A stretch of 40,127 nt of DNA, taken from Actinomycetota bacterium. GTDB taxonomy: Bacteria > Actinomycetota > Coriobacteriia > Anaerosomatales > UBA912. Positions 13,475 to 19,374 of the stretch are shown in pieces (within the stretch, counting starts at the first letter, position 1; the number at the start of each line of letters is the position of its first letter). The position numbers were made by a program, and so were the translations under genes. Where the stretch lies: NCBI GenBank assembly GCA_018334075.1, contig JAGXSC010000042.1, positions 1 through 40,127 on the forward strand. The letters run 5' to 3'. Below the pieces are notes generated by a model. That model was not told the origin of the DNA, did not search any database, and saw nothing but the letters and a program-made list of their open reading frames with translations.

Positions 13475-14248
13475 TTAGGTTTTCGTGGCCCAGCGCCTGA
13501 GACCGTAGCCTGCAGATCCCATGAGCGTTGAGAGCATCGCCAGGAGCCAACCTGTGCCGCCCGTGAAGGGGAGGAACGGGTCCTCGTCGCTCTCTGTGAG
13601 CGGGAGGATCGGGTCCTCGTCTTCGACCGGAGGCTCTTCATCGATTGGAAGCTCTTCGTCTATCGGAAGCTCTTCCTCATCAACCGGGGGCTCCTCGTCT
13701 ACAGGAGGTTCCTCATCGACTGGAGGCTCTTCCTCGTCGACTGGGGGCTCCTCATCAACCGGGGGCTCCTCGTCTACAGGGGGTTCCTCATCGACTGGAG
13801 GCTCTTCCTCGTCAGGGGGCAGATAGTCCCATGACACATGGCTTAGCACGAGCTTTCCATCGCTTGAGTTCACAACCACGGAGGCCGACAGGAGTACATC
13901 ATGGCCACTTGTACCAACATAGAAGTGCTGGGTCCTGCCAGCGCCAACAGAGATGCCTGTCGCTGTTCTGGTTCCACCCGATGCAAAGGTTACAGTAAGT
14001 TGCCCTGCTGGAGACCCCTCATCAAGTTGGTTTAGGACAAAGTGCCAAACTACTGGATCTGCCAATCCGCCGTCATCAGACTCATTGTTGAAAGTCTCGC
14101 TGCTTGCGCCCACATGCGATCCGTGAAGCTGGATCGTAGAAAGCCCTAAGGCTACCCCGGCGAACAGCAGCAAAAATACCATTGCTGCCACCATGGGTAG
14201 CGATGCCAGAGTGAGCTTACTGAAACTTCTTTGTACTGAAGTCTTCAT
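13475..14248 (-). CDS. LPxTG-type surface protein with acidic Pro-rich repeats
   Basis: A 257-aa secreted wall protein. It has a long N-terminal signal (hydrophobic core AAMVFLLLFAGVALGL), then a compact domain of about 110 residues holding THFYVGTSG-type strands (a CARDB/DUF11-like look, family not recognised). A low-complexity region follows with about ten EEPPVD/EELPID units (roughly residues 148-215). The end has LPFTGG, a membrane helix and the basic tail RRWATKT, a standard sortase signal. Sortase would link it to peptidoglycan; the repeats act as a stiff spacer. ATG 14248 has AAAGGAGG eight bases upstream. Function of the exposed domain unknown. No sortase gene is in the window. Confidence 0.85.
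   Translation of the reverse strand: MKTSVQRSFSKLTLASLPMVAAMVFLLLFAGVALGLSTIQLHGSHVGASSETFNNESDDGGLADPVVWHFVLNQLDEGSPAGQLTVTFASGGTRTATGISVGAGRTQHFYVGTSGHDVLLSASVVVNSSDGKLVLSHVSWDYLPPDEEEPPVDEEPPVDEEPPVDEEPPVDEEEPPVDEEPPVDEEPPVDEEELPIDEELPIDEEPPVEDEDPILPLTESDEDPFLPFTGGTGWLLAMLSTLMGSAGYGLRRWATKT
13600..13815. repeat. Nested 15/75-bp coding repeats in the surface-protein gene
   Basis: Codon-level repeats of roughly 15-18 bp encode EEPPVD/EELPID. A larger 75-bp block (start near 13681, again near 13756) recurs nearly unchanged, including its synonymous codon choices, so the array has grown by recent duplication. Confidence 0.75.
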
Positions 14249-14298
14249 GATGCTCGCCTCCTTTATCTATCAATCGGTGCTTTCCTTTCACTTAATAC

Positions 14299-14345
14299 TT
14301 ACCCAAAATTACACTTTACTAATCATTTTACTTAGCTCTTACTAA
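14299..14345. promoter_or_regulatory. Phased TTACTWA direct repeats
   Basis: TTACTWA occurs at 14316, 14328 and 14339, about one helical turn apart, with a diverged TTACCCA at 14299. They lie 51-97 bases upstream of the LPxTG gene start, in an otherwise gene-free AT-rich stretch (14249-14408). Phased direct repeats are typical of response-regulator or activator sites. The same TTACTA core recurs at 36066. Confidence 0.4.
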
Positions 14346-14408
14346 TTATGATTAAATGCCCCGACCCTTAGCGCAAGACCCTTGATTATTGTGGATGCAT
14401 TACGGATC

Positions 14409-14606
14409 GCCTTTAGCGGTAAGCGTGAGCTTTGCCTCATCTTCAACACTAAGCGATGACGTTTGCTTATGAGTTGACACAGGGGTAGCACACAAAATTA
14501 ACAGAAACATTAAGCGATAGAAGCATTGACGCGCGGGGAGGGGCCATGACATGTTCTTTTAGAGGGCGACTTTTTCCAATCGGGCGAAGAGATAACTGCG
14601 TGGAAA
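14409..14606 (+). repeat. Leader repeat copy R1
   Basis: About 198 bp nearly identical (by eye over 90 percent) to 16828-17027. Its first 33 bp (14409-14441) match the 3' part of the HemW-like gene. TTGACA (14474-14479) and a later TTGACG give promoter-like boxes ahead of the secreted-protein gene. Both copies stand directly upstream of an island gene block. Confidence 0.7.
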
Positions 14607-14647
14607 TGGTTGTTGAAGAATAATTTTTAAAGGGGGCGAAAAAATCA

Positions 14648-15370
14648 ATGAAGAAGAAAGTCCGTACTGTGTCGGTGTTGCTAGCGGGGATTCTTTTAAT
14701 GTCTAGTACCTTTGCGACTCCGATAGCCGCCGGGCAGGGAAATGGCAGGGGGCAAGAAAAACAACGTGCGCAGCAAGTTCAGTATCTTGATGCAGAGATA
14801 CAAGTGATTGACGGTCAGCCAATGCTTAAGGTTGAAACAAAAGAAGGCTATGCATCCTATGAGTTCCCTTGGCCGGAGGTAGCGATTGTCGATGGCAGGG
14901 AGGTTACCTTGGAAAGACAGGGTAATTACTTTTTGCTCCAAACAGATGATGGTACCGAAAAAGTCTCCATTGAGGACTTTCAGGTGGCACTGGTAGCCGG
15001 ACAATTGATGTTAGTAAAAAGCGTGAATCCTTGGTGGACGGTACCAGTCGCAGTTGCTAAGGCTGCACTAATAGCCGCAGGAGTGCCAGTAACAATGGCA
15101 AACTTAAGCGCTGCGACCCTATTGATAGCGGCAGGTAAAAGTGTGACTGCGATAACAGTCCGACGGGTAGTATTAGCCCAGACCGCAATAGCTGCCGGAG
15201 TTGCAGTGGATAGGGCTGTTTCGACGTATAATCTTCTACGCGCAACCTATAGATGGATAATAGGTACTTGCATGTCGTGTGGCAGACTACGCACGCCCGG
15301 TGGTAGTTTTGGTGATTTTTATAGTAGCGCGTGCGCCCGAAGGCTTGGCGGTCAGCGCTCTTTTCCCTAG
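14648..15370 (+). CDS. Secreted protein with hydrophobic core, unknown family
   Basis: A 240-aa protein I do not recognise. A signal peptide (KKKVRTVSVLLAGILLMSSTFATPIAAG) is followed by a polar stretch rich in Gln, Glu and Lys (about 30-125), then a long Ala/Val-rich hydrophobic region (about 126-205, around VPVAVAKAALIAAGVPVTM and VLAQTAIAAGVAVDRAV), and a Cys/Gly-rich basic tail (GTCMSCGRL to the end, with a third Cys near the end). This signal, pro-region, hydrophobic-peptide layout resembles SdpC-like or other membrane-active peptide precursors, but no family match is claimed. ATG 14648 has AAGGGGG upstream. It is AT-rich compared with the flanking genes and is followed by a hairpin and a membrane-protein gene. 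Confidence 0.7.
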   Translation: MKKKVRTVSVLLAGILLMSSTFATPIAAGQGNGRGQEKQRAQQVQYLDAEIQVIDGQPMLKVETKEGYASYEFPWPEVAIVDGREVTLERQGNYFLLQTDDGTEKVSIEDFQVALVAGQLMLVKSVNPWWTVPVAVAKAALIAAGVPVTMANLSAATLLIAAGKSVTAITVRRVVLAQTAIAAGVAVDRAVSTYNLLRATYRWIIGTCMSCGRLRTPGGSFGDFYSSACARRLGGQRSFP

Positions 15371-15398
15371 CCTTTAGATGTTTCTCTAAGAATAATGG

Positions 15399-15440
15399 CT
15401 CATGGGCCGCCCTGGTGGTAGCCCATGAGTGTATCATTTT
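15399..15440 (+). terminator. Hairpin with T-rich tail after the secreted-protein gene
   Basis: CTCATGGGC (15399-15407) pairs perfectly with GCCCATGAG (15421-15429), with a 13-base loop, and the next bases include ATTTTTAATTT. This is a good intrinsic terminator. The next gene starts only 34 bases beyond the stem, so partial read-through may set the ratio of the two products. Confidence 0.65.
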
Positions 15441-15463
15441 TAATTTGGGAGTATTGATTTCTT

Positions 15464-15919
15464 ATGGATACAGAAGATTTGATACTTACATATATAGTGA
15501 TATGCGCGGTGTTTGGTTTGATATTCTTTGTCCCAAGTTTTCTTGGACAAAACGCCTGGTTATGGCTAAATAGCCGTTTTTTATGGCCACAGGACGATAT
15601 AAGAAAACCCAGAGCCAAGATCTCTTTCTCCTCCTCATTGGACGAGTTTCCGTTCTGGAGCATTCTTGCCGATCTTGTGATAACTAATACAATACTTGTA
15701 GTACTGTGCGAATTGGATATATTCAATATCCCTCCAGGAGAATTACCCCTATCAGATTATATTGCTATAGCTGTAGAGACACAGCAATTACACGACCCGG
15801 AGCATGTCATGGTTCGTATCACTATTATGGCAACAGTATATTTCATTGCTGGTGCTGTGAACCAATGGTTGCGTGAAAGAAAAAGATTGAAAAGACTGAA
15901 GGCTAGTTTTGCTGAGTAA
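15464..15919 (+). CDS. Three-helix membrane protein, island family (copy 1)
   Basis: A 151-aa membrane protein with helices near residues 7-29 (LILTYIVICAVFGLIFFV), 66-87 (ILADLVITNTILVVLCELDIF) and 119-139 (RITIMATVYFIAGAVNQWL), and a basic C-terminal tail (RERKRLKRLK). It is paralogous to the gene at 17571: both have QQLHDPEHVM/QRLQEDPVHLM just before helix 3, a SRxxxP/RLFPS segment after helix 1, and matching bases before the start (GGAG about 12 bases upstream of ATG). It follows the secreted-protein gene. Possible immunity or processing partner (inference). Confidence 0.72.
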   Translation: MDTEDLILTYIVICAVFGLIFFVPSFLGQNAWLWLNSRFLWPQDDIRKPRAKISFSSSLDEFPFWSILADLVITNTILVVLCELDIFNIPPGELPLSDYIAIAVETQQLHDPEHVMVRITIMATVYFIAGAVNQWLRERKRLKRLKASFAE

Positions 15920-15963
15920 TTAAACGCCCCCCCCCGAGCCAGATGTACCTCGCGAAAACAAGC

Positions 15964-16100
15964 TATAAGCGGGTAAAAGGTCACCTTTTATTCCCGAGAG
16001 TTTGGCCATCTCCGCGTCGTAAAGCAACATCACGCATGTCTGACTGGGAGAAGTTGAAGATCATGTCGACGTTGAGCGGGCGAAACTTGCTGGCGGCTCG
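15964..16100 (-). pseudogene. Internal scrap of the HemW-like gene
   Basis: This stretch aligns by eye with about 18710-18846 of the intact HemW-like gene, including CATCTCCGCGTC and GAAGATCATGTCGACGTTGAG, but it has indels and no open frame. It lies after a run of nine C (15927-15935) and just ahead of the decayed membrane-protein copy. It keeps the same orientation as the intact gene. Confidence 0.7.
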
Positions 16101-16153
16101 TCAGAAGAAAAGGGGCACCAGATTCGTACGTTTCTAGGTAGAGGAGGATTTTT

Positions 16154-16252
16154 GTGCCGAACCCTATATTGCCGGTAACGACGGACCCCGTAGTGGCGGT
16201 AATAGCATTTATTGCCTTATGGATGCTGCATTCCTACATAGTTCGCAAATAA
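16154..16252 (+). CDS. 32-residue membrane peptide, truncated head of the island family
   Basis: GAGGAGG at 16141-16147 sits six bases before GTG 16154, which opens a 32-codon frame: a short lead, one hydrophobic helix (VVAVIAFIALWMLHSYIV) and RK before TAA. Its TDPVVAVIAFIA aligns with YDPVIDLLAVIGFI of the gene at 17127, and homology continues past the stop, so this is the start of a broken copy. The strong ribosome site means the peptide could still be made. Confidence 0.5.
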   Translation: MPNPILPVTTDPVVAVIAFIALWMLHSYIVRK

Positions 16253-16425
16253 GACCGCAAGGGCACTGTTTCCCTCTTTATTTACAAAGCCGTTGGTTCT
16301 ACGATGGGGGCAAGAATACATTTTCGTATTTCCGCTGAATTATAACTCTATTTTTATTGGCCGATTTGCAGCCCTTCTTTTTTCGGCTGGAGATCAAATC
16401 TCCGTTCACAAGGAAGTTGCGAATC
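16253..16425 (+). pseudogene. Rest of a decayed copy of the 17127 gene
   Basis: The bases CTGTTTCCCTCTTTATTTAC (from about 16266) match the coding bases around LLFPSLCTKP of the 17127 gene. A later GGCCGATTTGCAG...TTTTTCGGCTGG stretch matches its helix 3 (FIGRFIVVLFFSW). Stops and frameshifts interrupt the frame, and the part for helix 2 is shortened. Confidence 0.65.
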
Positions 16426-16439
16426 GGAGGGGACTGGAT

Positions 16440-16745
16440 AAAAGGCCTTACTCTGGTGGTGCTTTATTTGTAGGCTTTCTGCTGCTAGTTATCCCAGAGA
16501 GGCTTGGACAAAAAGTCGGCATTTGGGCTGTCGCGCGACTATTTCCGTCATAGCCGCAGGGCAGACAGGGCGGACCACCGTCTATCAGGAGACTATCTGG
16601 CTGGTTGTGGGTTGCATCTGTGTTTATTGCCGTAGTTGCAGTTGAAGGCATTTTTCATTATTGGTTTTGTAGGTAATTTTCTTAGTAGTTGGCATCGTTT
16701 CACAAAAAAGAAGCAAAACAGCTCAGATCCAGCTTCTGAAAAGAT
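16440..16745 (+). pseudogene. Decayed copy of the 17571 membrane-protein gene
   Basis: It matches the 17594-18025 segment at its start (LTLVV/ARLFPS region: GGGCTGTCGCGCGACTATTT), middle (ACTATCTGGCTGGTTG) and end (CATTTTTCATTATTGGTTTT, CATCGTTTCACAAAAAAGAA). A stop follows AVARLFPS at 16551-16553, and about 130 bp between helices 2 and 3 is missing. It ends by joining directly to the HemW-like 3' scrap. Confidence 0.75.
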
Positions 16746-16746
16746 A

Positions 16747-16860
16747 GGGTAAAGACTCTCTTGCCTGGTCGCGAACGCTGTTCACGCTCACGAAAAACTG
16801 CCGCACCATCGCGATCAGCAGGTATCTGCCTTTGGCGGTAAGCGTGAGCCTTGCCTCATC
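16747..16860 (-). pseudogene. 3' scrap of the HemW-like gene
   Basis: These 114 bp match 18127-18240 without gaps and with about eight mismatches by eye. The reading frame of the scrap is still open and encodes LTLTAKGRYLLIAMVRQFFV and SVNSVRDQARESLP, nearly the same as the intact protein. Weak protein-level similarity (SVEDEARL versus DVDDEVRL) continues past the DNA match, hinting that the scrap came from a diverged homologue. Confidence 0.8.
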
Positions 16861-17027
16861 TTCAACACTAAGCGATGACGCTTGCCTATGAGTTGACACA
16901 CAGGGGTAACACACAAAATTAACAGAAACATTAGGCAATAGAAGTATTGACGTGCGGGTCGGGGCTATGACATGTTCTTTTAGAGGGCGACTTTTTCCAA
17001 TCGGGTGAAGAGATAACTGCGTGGAAA
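16828..17027 (+). repeat. Leader repeat copy R2
   Basis: Second copy of the leader at 14409-14606, including TTGACA at 16893-16898 and a two-base insertion after it. It overlaps the end of the HemW-like 3' scrap, and the junction between scrap and leader is the same in both copies. It precedes the pair of membrane-protein genes at 17127 and 17571. The following 100 bp hold a 7-bp inverted repeat (TTTCCAC/GTGGAAA) and no gene. Confidence 0.7.
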
Positions 17028-17126
17028 CGATTTTAGCTGGGCATTTTTCAATACGCCCTGACGGTTTGTGTGCATTTTCCACGGTATCCTTGTTTTATTC
17101 GGTGGAAATAACCATGCTTTTGAGGG

Positions 17127-17552
17127 GTGCGAATTTTTGAAGGATATGATCCCGTGATCGACTTGCTAGCAGTAATTGGGTTCATTGTCTTAGGGTTATT
17201 TTTTTGGGGCATATTTCATGTACTTATTCCCACTTATCTGGCAAATAAAGCTGCGAAGCTACTATTTCCCTCTTTATGTACAAAGCCAGTGGATGACCGA
17301 TTTTGGCACTTTTTTGTTTTCCCTCTTCCGCTGCTACTTATCATATCTCTATCGCTTTTACACTTCGGGTTAGATCTTGACTTGCAAATACCAACGTGGT
17401 TCCCATGGGCTCCTGAGGGTTTGCACCATATGTATCACAGATTTGCGCCCTCAGTGCCAGTTGCCGTGTTTATTGGCCGGTTTATAGTGGTGCTTTTCTT
17501 CAGCTGGCGGATGAAAATTAAAGATAGCAGCTCACAGGGTGCATTGCCTTAG
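17127..17552 (+). CDS. Three-helix membrane protein, island family (copy 2)
   Basis: A 141-aa membrane protein with helices at about 11-35 (LLAVIGFIVLGLFFWGIFHV), 61-83 (FVFPLPLLLIISLSLLHFGL) and 112-130 (VPVAVFIGRFIVVLFFSW). It shares with the other members the segment KLLFPS after helix 1 and a basic C-terminal end. The frame opens at GTG 17127; GTG 17154 with AAGGA nine bases upstream is an equally good start. Strongly AT-rich codon use. It is 18 bp ahead of the next family member, so the two are likely co-translated. Function unknown. Confidence 0.68.
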   Translation: MRIFEGYDPVIDLLAVIGFIVLGLFFWGIFHVLIPTYLANKAAKLLFPSLCTKPVDDRFWHFFVFPLPLLLIISLSLLHFGLDLDLQIPTWFPWAPEGLHHMYHRFAPSVPVAVFIGRFIVVLFFSWRMKIKDSSSQGALP

Positions 17553-17570
17553 TTAGGAGCGTTGATTCTT

Positions 17571-18056
17571 ATGGAAACAATAGGTCTGATACTCCTTACT
17601 CTAGTGGTGTTTTTGCTTGTGGCCCTTTTGCTGATGGTTACCCCAATAGAGCTTGGGCATCAAGGCGGAAATTGGGCTGTCTCGCGACTCTTTCCGTCAT
17701 GGCCGCCAGGCAGACGGTGGTACGACGAGCTACCGCTCAGGAAACTATCTGGCTGGTTGCGGGTTGCACCTGCAGTTATCGTTTTAGCTATGGCTCAAGC
17801 AGTGTTCGATAACTTTATTGCTGAGGAACCTAGCCCGCTAGGCGCCCCCTACCTTATCTTTACATCGTTGCAGGAGCAGCGACTACAAGAAGACCCTGTG
17901 CATTTGATGATTTACGGCATCCTTTTAGCTACGGCATTTTTCATTATTGGTTTTGTAGGTACTTTTCTTAGTAGCTGGCATCGTTTCACAAAAAAGAAGC
18001 AAAGCAGCTCATATCCAACTTCTGAAAAGCCGTACTTGAATTCTGATGCTAAATAG
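17571..18056 (+). CDS. Three-helix membrane protein, island family (copy 3)
   Basis: A 161-aa membrane protein with helices near 4-26 (IGLILLTLVVFLLVALLLMV), 67-88 (VAPAVIVLAMAQAVFDNFI) and 121-142 (MIYGILLATAFFIIGFVGTF), then a Lys/Ser-rich tail. SRLFPSWPPGRRW follows helix 1. ATG 17571 is set by comparison with copy 1 (AGGAG then a matching TTGATTCTT spacer); TTG 17562 is also open. A decayed copy is at 16440. It ends 29 bp from the convergent HemW-like gene. Function unknown. Confidence 0.7.
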   Translation: METIGLILLTLVVFLLVALLLMVTPIELGHQGGNWAVSRLFPSWPPGRRWYDELPLRKLSGWLRVAPAVIVLAMAQAVFDNFIAEEPSPLGAPYLIFTSLQEQRLQEDPVHLMIYGILLATAFFIIGFVGTFLSSWHRFTKKKQSSSYPTSEKPYLNSDAK

Positions 18057-18084
18057 CAAGACGTCGTCAAAAGCATGATTCCTC

Positions 18085-19374
18085 TCAGCATTTTCCCTCG
18101 CCGAAAAGCAACGCGCGCTCCTCGGCGGGTAAAGACTCTCTTGCCTGGTCGCGAACGCTGTTCACGCTAACGAAGAACTGCCGCATCATCGCGACCAGCA
18201 GGTATCTACCTTTAGCGGTAAGCGTAAGCCTTACCTCATCGTCTACGTCAAAAGCACCGTTCATGCGCAGGAATGCCATCTCAATGGGCAGGGCCCGATC
18301 GATCGCCACCCCAAAATCATCGGCAAACTTACGCTTGTCCAGCGAAAGACCGAACAGCTCCATGAGAATCCTGTAGCGCATTCTCGATCCGCGAGAAAAA
18401 CGCCTCGTCTGCGCGATAGAGGTGCCGTGAGAATCAATCCGGCGGATATAGTCATCGACCGAGAATGTGCTCACATATAGCGCTCCGCCAAGGTAGGAGA
18501 AAACGCCGCTCCCGACCCCGACGTACTCCTCATAATCCACGATGTACTCGTCGAGCATGCCTTTTCCCGTATGAGAGAATGTCCACGCGCTGGCAGGCGT
18601 GAACTCTGGGGCCAGCTTTTCGACTATCGTGTGATAGTAGAGAGCCTCACGCTCGTAGCTCACCGCCCCCACCGTGCGCCTGAGTGAATCCTCCACCACC
18701 GGCGAGGCCATGAGCGGGTAGAAGGTCGTCTGGTTCACTCCCGAGGCCTTGATCATCTCCGCGTCATGAAGAAGCATCTCGCGTGTCTGGCTCGGGAAGT
18801 TGAAGATCATGTCGACGTTGAGAGAGTGGAACTTGCCGGCGACCCAGCGCAAGCGCTCAAGTATCTCTTCACTCGAGCCGTATTTCTCGTAGCGATCCAT
18901 CTGCTTGAGCAGCGAGTCGTCAAAGCTCTGGACCCCTACGCTGAATCGATCGACACGCGACACCAAAGGATCGACGACCTCCGGGATCAAATGATTCGGA
19001 TTACTCTCCGAAGAAACCTCCCGGATATCAAAGAGTGACTTGGCGAGATCTATCGTCTCGCACAACTCGTCCACGAGCATCGTAGGAGTTCCGCCGCCGA
19101 TGTACATCGAAGTGCATCGATATCCCCGCTCGGCCACCATACGTATCTCTTCTCGCATGCGGCGAAAGTACTCGCGCGCGCGGCTCTCCTCGAAGGGGAT
19201 CCTGTTAAACGAGCAGTACGGGCACAGCTTTGAGCAAAAGGGTACGTGTGCATAGAGCAGGTATTTGCGCGCGACGTCCGGCTCCGGCAGGGCTTTTCCA
19301 TCGAATCGCTTTAGCTTCAGCAGATGGCTCGCCGAATACTGCATCACTGTGGAGATCAGGCGCTCGGCGATCAT
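18085..19374 (-). CDS. HemN/HemW-like radical SAM protein
   Basis: A 429-aa radical SAM enzyme of the coproporphyrinogen oxidase-like family. YLLYAHVPFCSKLCPYCSFNR carries the CxxxCxxC cluster site with the extra family Cys-x-Phe; MYIGGGTPTML binds SAM, and RFSVGVQSFDDSLLKQMDR is typical of the family. HemN makes protoporphyrinogen anaerobically, HemW inserts heme, and HutW/ChuW degrade heme; the sequence alone does not separate these. Its ATG overlaps the purD stop (ATGA), so the two are coupled. Pieces of this gene are scattered in the neighbouring island. Confidence 0.82.
   Translation of the reverse strand: MIAERLISTVMQYSASHLLKLKRFDGKALPEPDVARKYLLYAHVPFCSKLCPYCSFNRIPFEESRAREYFRRMREEIRMVAERGYRCTSMYIGGGTPTMLVDELCETIDLAKSLFDIREVSSESNPNHLIPEVVDPLVSRVDRFSVGVQSFDDSLLKQMDRYEKYGSSEEILERLRWVAGKFHSLNVDMIFNFPSQTREMLLHDAEMIKASGVNQTTFYPLMASPVVEDSLRRTVGAVSYEREALYYHTIVEKLAPEFTPASAWTFSHTGKGMLDEYIVDYEEYVGVGSGVFSYLGGALYVSTFSVDDYIRRIDSHGTSIAQTRRFSRGSRMRYRILMELFGLSLDKRKFADDFGVAIDRALPIEMAFLRMNGAFDVDDEVRLTLTAKGRYLLVAMMRQFFVSVNSVRDQARESLPAEERALLFGEGKC

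What the first reader, a model, noticed from the sequence alone, without database searches (positions are those of the whole stretch)
14409..17027. 200-bp leader present twice, each ahead of an island gene block
14409-14606 and 16828-17027 are nearly identical, keep TTGACA boxes, and each precedes the start of an island gene group, whereas the genes after them differ. Conserved non-coding leaders with variable cargo suggest a cassette-like organisation, with the leader carrying the promoter and a recombination track.
Basis: seen in the sequence. Interest (0 to 1): 0.55.

Follow-up and report, generated by a model that had tools for sequence, protein, structure and literature searches.

The report
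Shared start module for swapped toxins
The repeated 200-base stretch is the promoter region of a small family of secreted, toxin-like proteins whose start (switch and export signal) stays the same while the protein behind it is swapped, and distantly related bacteria from alkaline serpentine waters carry the same module.

Summary
In detail: 14409-14606 and 16828-17027 match at 92.5% over 200 columns. The stated boundaries are not those of a unit. The first ~39 bases are a piece of the 3' end of the neighbouring hemN-like gene (18085-19374, minus). The conserved module runs on through promoter, 5' leader and signal peptide to ~14746-14755. Further copies lie on contigs C64, C7 and C1 of this genome and in three Bacillota MAGs. 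Cargo differs between copies; several cargos share an N-terminal domain but not the C-terminus, and the next gene usually matches the cargo type: a polymorphic secreted toxin-immunity family. In the window, copy 1 heads such a gene (14648-15370; putative immunity 15464-15919). Copy 2 has lost RBS and signal peptide and precedes orphan immunity-like genes. Leaders cluster by genome rather than by cargo. In Bacillota, 8 of 10 copies carry 11-nt TTAACA repeats as at pstS, and a G tract between -35 and -10 varies (G5/G10, G7/G12), suggesting phosphate control and phase variation. The window copies have neither (tract broken, spacer 18). Toxicity, transcription and recombination are inferred, not shown.

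The parts
14410..14447 (-). short copy of the 3' end of the hemN-like gene, left edge of leader copy 1
   Evidence: 87% to 18209-18246
14474..14503 (+). TTGACA ... TTAACA, remnant of the repeat operator (TTAACA at 14498-14503); not at 11-nt spacing here
14526..14555 (+). proposed promoter: TTGACG, 18-nt spacer CGCGGGGAGGGGCCATGA (G tract interrupted), CATGTT; -10 picked by eye
   Evidence: not listed by the consensus scan
14565..14615 (+). 5'-leader hairpin (suggested): GGCGACT-TTTTCC ... GGAAA-GGTTGTT
14630..14636 (+). ribosome-binding-site-like AAGGGGG
14648..14746 (+). signal-peptide codons, the shared coding end of the head module
14648..15370 (+). type A secreted toxin-like protein, 240 aa, no Pfam or NCBIfam match above cut-off
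15464..15919 (+). putative immunity protein of the type A family, about 3 transmembrane segments
15962..16095 (-). inner fragment of the hemN-like gene, decayed
   Evidence: 79% to 18707-18841
16230..16743 (+). decayed copy of the membrane module 17127-18056
   Evidence: broken frame
16747..16866 (-). copy of the 3' end of the hemN-like gene, overlapping the start of leader copy 2
   Evidence: 92% to 18127-18246
16828..17027 (+). leader copy 2, without RBS and signal peptide; TTGACG 16947-16952, 18-nt spacer, CATGTT 16971-16976
17127..17552 (+). membrane protein of unknown family, first gene of the orphan module
17562..18056 (+). orphan immunity-like membrane protein, same family as 15464-15919
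18085..19374 (-). intact hemN-like gene (coproporphyrinogen III oxidase family), source of the fragments
   Evidence: NF006385, 508 bits

Best explanation
The repeated stretch is the head module (promoter, 5' leader, RBS, signal peptide) of a family of secreted polymorphic toxin-like proteins, each followed by its own immunity-like gene. Cargo is exchanged behind the head module by homologous recombination and duplication. In the window, copy 1 heads a type A toxin-immunity pair. Copy 2 stems from a tandem duplication that also copied the 3' end of the neighbouring hemN-like gene; its RBS and signal peptide are gone and it now stands before orphan immunity-like genes. Shown by sequence: the copies, the shared signal peptide, shared N-termini with differing C-termini, downstream genes that match the cargo type, the hemN fragments, and leaders that follow genome more than cargo. 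Inferred: promoter activity, secretion, toxicity, immunity, and recombination as the route.
For: Head-module copies in the own genome and in Bacillota. C60 and window proteins agree over the N-terminal 130 residues only (53%); C7 shares only the signal peptide. Partner genes by cargo type: A followed by the membrane family in 4 of 5 loci (window, C1, G398:C20, G396:C131 with a broken toxin gene; not G003), B followed by the soluble family in 3 of 3, C in 1 intact locus plus a remnant with its partner in L055, C' in 2 of 2. Orphan partners in the window, L053 and L055. hemN fragments next to leaders in C42, C64, C19. Leaders group by genome.
Against: No known toxin domain: no Pfam or NCBIfam match above cut-off, no useful fold match. 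G003 has a type A protein without the leader or the type A partner. The one same-genome, same-cargo leader pair is only 74% alike, and the five own-genome leaders do not form one clade. Promoter not found by a consensus scan. Some contigs end inside the module, so part of the copies could be strain variants in the assembly.
Confidence: 0.74

Rival explanations
1. Regulated, phase-variable version: in the Bacillota relatives the head module carries a PHO box and a slippery G tract between -35 and -10, so each toxin gene responds to phosphate limitation and switches at random with tract length. The window copies would be a stabilised descendant. It extends the best explanation for the relatives.
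For: 8 of 10 Bacillota copies have three TTAACA-like repeats at exactly 11 nt, reached by 0 of 200 shuffles; pstS of G396 and G398 has the same arrangement (16 of 18 positions). In the G398 pair 328 upstream bases are identical and the first difference is G10 against G5; G397 pair G12 against G7. 6 of the 12 G/C runs of 7 or more in 66.9 kb of the three genomes lie in leader spacers. Spacers 14-21 nt.
Against: Own-genome copies: spacer 18 in 5 of 5, tract interrupted or G6, repeats not at 11 nt (0 of 6). Two of 10 Bacillota copies score lower (C122, C131). Tract lengths come from assemblies; -10 hexamers were picked by eye. No population data.
Confidence: 0.5
2. Ordinary tandem duplication of a non-toxic secreted-protein locus next to hemN, decaying, with the leader kept only because it is recent; the proteins are surface or stress proteins.
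For: hemN fragments and a decayed module show duplication and decay. No known toxin domain. N-terminal beta domain predicted at fair confidence fits many secreted proteins.
Against: Same head module with different cargo at unlinked places and in another phylum; partner genes change with the cargo type; orphan partners and cargo tails (L055).
Confidence: 0.18
3. The leader is a small mobile element (MITE-like) that inserted ahead of several genes.
For: Several copies at separate places; transposase genes near one copy.
Against: No inverted ends beyond chance (best 10-base arm match 7, reached by 194-196 of 200 random placements). Copies begin and end at different points. The conserved part includes an in-frame signal peptide.
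Confidence: 0.04

Closest known systems
MafB/MafI secreted polymorphic toxins of Neisseria (PMC4287609, passages seen)
   Same: Signal peptide, similar N-termini, variable C-termini, immunity gene directly downstream, extra cassettes and immunity genes in islands.
   Different: No sequence relation was found or tested; here the protein is about 240 aa, the conservation reaches far into non-coding DNA, and one copy (C7) shares nothing but head module and signal peptide.
Polymorphic toxin systems in general (PMC3482391, passages seen)
   Same: C-terminal domains exchanged with cassettes; several immunity genes in a row.
   Different: No toxin or immunity family of Pfam or NCBIfam recognised; exchange also at the signal-peptide end.
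Promoters phase-varied by a homopolymer between -35 and -10: porA, fetA, opc of Neisseria (PMC2791445, passages seen)
   Same: G tract in the spacer with differing lengths (Bacillota copies).
   Different: Paralogous toxin promoters in Bacillota, combined with PHO-like repeats; the window copies have an interrupted tract.
PHO boxes (PMC4415409, passages seen)
   Same: 11-nt direct repeats, shared arrangement with pstS in the same genomes.
   Different: Gene behind it is a toxin-like secreted protein; in the window genome the spacing is off.

Membership tests
Polymorphic toxin system | shared N-terminal part with different C-terminal domains | tested here: met
   window vs C60: 53% over 130 N-terminal residues only; L053/L055 vs window likewise mainly N-terminal
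Polymorphic toxin system | immunity gene directly downstream, matching the toxin type | tested here: met
   by gene order and homology only: A 4 of 5, B 3 of 3, C' 2 of 2; protection not tested
Polymorphic toxin system | orphan immunity genes or toxin cassettes nearby | tested here: met
   window 17562-18056 and 16230-16743; L053 5563-5979; L055 3507-4568 and 6393-7121
Polymorphic toxin system | C-terminal domain of a known toxin family or shown toxicity | tested here: inconclusive
   no match above cut-off in Pfam or NCBIfam; DUF4258 at E 0.2 for C60; toxicity not testable here
Promoter phase variation by homopolymer slippage | homopolymer between -35 and -10 with differing length between close copies | tested here: met
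   Bacillota pairs G5/G10 and G7/G12; not so in the own genome, where the spacer is 18 in 5 of 5
Promoter phase variation by homopolymer slippage | reversible length change within one population that alters expression | not testable with these tools
   needs reads and reporters
Pho regulon | 11-nt direct repeats upstream, as in pstS of the same genome (Bacillota copies) | tested here: met
   8 of 10 copies at 0 of 200 shuffles; pstS of G396 and G398
Pho regulon | 11-nt direct repeats upstream in the window genome's own copies | tested here: not met
   W1 12/18, reached by 30 of 200 shuffles; W2 best at 13 nt; C64, C7, C1a, C1b none
MITE / small mobile element | terminal inverted repeats and fixed ends | tested here: not met
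Integron gene cassette | attC sites and an integron integrase | not tested
   not examined

The most novel reading that the evidence does not exclude
A cross-phylum 'promoter plus signal peptide' platform: one phosphate-controlled, slippage-switched head module, kept alike within a genome by recombination, onto which different secreted toxins and their immunity genes are exchanged among Bacillota and Actinobacteria of serpentinizing waters, so that each cell releases a different random subset of toxins when phosphate runs out. The window holds a stabilised branch of it.
Probability: 0.3. Interest if true: 0.78.

Novelty: new variant of a known kind. Interest (0 to 1): 0.6.

Why it matters
Polymorphic toxins are known for variable tips. 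Here the conserved part is largely regulatory DNA plus a signal peptide, shared between phyla, and in the Bacillota relatives it looks phase-variable and phosphate-linked. If true, it ties conflict between bacteria to phosphate scarcity, gives a DNA signature for finding unknown secreted toxins by their promoter rather than their protein, and makes cargo exchange directly testable. The cargo and partner families matched nothing in Pfam or NCBIfam above cut-off, so they are candidates for new toxin and immunity families.

Tried and rejected
Leader as a known RNA family: no Rfam hit in the window, L007, L008, L009, L021 except a tRNA in L021, nor in L053 and L075. Leader in phages and plasmids: none. 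Leader DNA among relatives: 1 of 61 genomes, the own one. Conserved leader core as a pattern: 6 places in the own genome, none in the other 3 genomes of the family. Signal-peptide profile in the phylum: 1 of 396, the own genome. Leader in the order of G396: 3 of 19 genomes, all three already found. MITE-like ends: rejected. Consensus scan of 14200-18200: 3 promoter-like sites against 5.3 expected, none at the leader. Structure of the type A protein: mean pLDDT 72.5; Foldseek had no match at E<=0.001; best VIA-align Z 3.8, which the tool's note treats as not telling. Type B model too poor to use, pLDDT 47. Hairpin in the 5' leader: 86.7% of cells paired against 22-52% when slid, but covariation is reached by 185 of 500 shuffles, so only suggested. 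The pstS of G398 scored 10/18 because the 250-nt stretch used there missed the repeats, which lie further upstream (420 nt). One search used 13 of the 17 leader copies; left out were window copy 2, G003, C83 and G397:C64, which lack signal peptide or leader or are cut; pairs with unknown cargo were not averaged. The -10 hexamers were a list chosen by eye.

Papers: PMC2791445, PMC4415409, PMC3482391 and PMC4287609, passages only; PMC7325909, outline and abstract (not used as evidence); all others, search listing only. No paper describing this leader family appeared in the listings; the library is open-access papers only.

Full report
Observation. The two stretches match at 92.5% over 200 columns, above chance (0 of 20 shuffled windows). 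Their left edge is not leader: 14410-14447 and 16747-16866 are copies of the 3' end of the hemN-like gene 18085-19374 (gene named by NF006385). Another hemN piece lies at 15962-16095. The two-gene membrane module 17127-18056 has a decayed copy at 16230-16743. The island therefore looks like a decayed tandem array whose unit was [hemN end, leader, gene(s), membrane module]. The joint of hemN end and leader recurs on contigs C64 and C19. In relative G001 hemN and the next gene align about 0.6 kb apart instead of about 4 kb.

What the leader is. The leader search in the own genome gave 6 matches: the query, window copy 2, C64, C7, a leader start on C19, and the hemN end itself. Between copies, homology runs on through RBS and start codon to the end of a signal peptide (14746 against C64, where that contig ends; 14755 against C7). 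A signal-peptide search found 5 places in the own genome: C42, C7, C64, C1 and C60. On C1 a related leader occurs twice, 94% identical over 140 nt, with a different gene after each copy. The second C1 copy lacks the promoter part; window copy 2 lacks RBS and signal peptide. The exchange points therefore vary.

Cargo. The window protein 14648-15370 has full-length relatives on C1 (65%) and in G003 (43%). C60 shares the N-terminal 130 residues (53%) and then carries another C-terminus, which is shared with the Bacillota proteins L053 and L055. C7 shares the signal peptide only and is followed by an ABC transporter ATPase gene and a second gene. Behind type A cargos stands one membrane-protein family in 4 of 5 loci (window 15464-15919, C1, G398:C20, and G396:C131, where the toxin gene is broken by stops); in G003 an ABC-2-like permease follows instead. 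Behind type B stands a soluble family (3 of 3). Types C and C' have their own partners. Extra partners without their toxin occur in L053, L055 and the window (17562-18056). This is the anatomy of a polymorphic toxin-immunity family; toxicity is inferred.

Across phyla. A scan of genome contigs found 7 loci: four in Dethiobacter sp. CROMO_SB6, one in Clostridium sp. CROMO_A_128, one in Bacillota HKB214, and UBA912, which is the G003 locus. The upstream DNA of the four Dethiobacter loci matches the window leader at 71-76% over about 225-280 columns; HKB214 matches in shorter pieces; for the Clostridium locus blastn found only 21 nt, inside the signal peptide, although its -35, spacer and RBS align. 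A DNA search then gave 6 places in G396, 2 in G397 and 2 in G398, and one search showed a further leader copy on G398:C20. Elsewhere it is rare: 1 of 396 genomes of the phylum, 3 of 19 of the order of G396. Leaders resemble each other by genome rather than by cargo: 83.7% (12 pairs, same genome, different cargo) against 74.4% (7 pairs, different genome, same cargo) and 76.6% (35 pairs, both different); the single same-genome, same-cargo pair is at 74%. In the tree the own-genome leaders fall into two well supported groups (window/C64/C7 and C1a/C1b) that need not form one clade.

Regulation in the relatives. 8 of 10 Bacillota copies have a triple TTAACA-like repeat at exactly 11 nt, reached by 0 of 200 shuffles, and pstS of G396 and G398 has the same arrangement, with TAACACAAAATTAACAG in common with the G396 leader. 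PHO boxes are 11-nt direct repeats (PMC4415409, passages). Between -35 and the proposed -10 lies a G tract. In the G398 pair 328 aligned bases upstream are identical and the first difference is G10 against G5; in the G397 pair it is G12 against G7. Spacers run 14-21 nt, and 6 of 12 G/C runs of 7 or more in the 66.9 kb fetched from these genomes lie in leader spacers. This is the layout of porA-type phase variation (PMC2791445, passages). Tract lengths are assembly calls.

Regulation in the window. Neither feature holds here: the tract is interrupted and the spacer is 18 in all five promoter-bearing own copies, and the repeats are off the 11-nt period. A weak promoter is plausible (TTGACG, 18 nt, CATGTT), but the consensus scan did not list it. 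A 5' hairpin is suggested, not established.

Verdict. A new variant of a known kind: polymorphic secreted toxin-like proteins with an unusually conserved head module.

Noticed in passing
window 13599-13831: 18-21-bp repeats inside the minus-strand gene 13475-14248, a repeat-rich linker in a secreted-looking protein.
   Followed up: no
window 15927-15935: A run of nine C just after the stop of 15464-15919, the only G/C run of 7 or more in the window and the own-genome loci examined.
   Followed up: no
L007 1458-2206 and 6345-7093: 749-bp direct repeat, 96% identical, holding a MazEF-like pair (name by eye) and flanking other genes; it ends next to the hemN fragment and leader on C64.
   Followed up: no
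L009 2530-2572, 4502-4587; L007 7069-7113: A 43-45-nt repeat beside the leader remnant on C19 and beside the hemN fragment on C64; nature unknown.
   Followed up: no
L008 8417-10914: Head module followed by an unrelated secreted protein, an ABC transporter ATPase gene and a further gene, perhaps a bacteriocin-like unit with transporter immunity.
   Followed up: partly
L055 2630-2680: TTGACAAGCGCGC followed by nine G, another promoter-like G tract outside the leader family.
   Followed up: no
L072 (G396:C83:211-364): A leader copy without its gene lies about 6 kb from pstS (C83:6608-7456) on the same contig.
   Followed up: no
L052 1856-2025: Second leader copy behind a type A toxin-immunity pair, followed by a different short signal-peptide-like frame; parallels the window.
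   Followed up: partly
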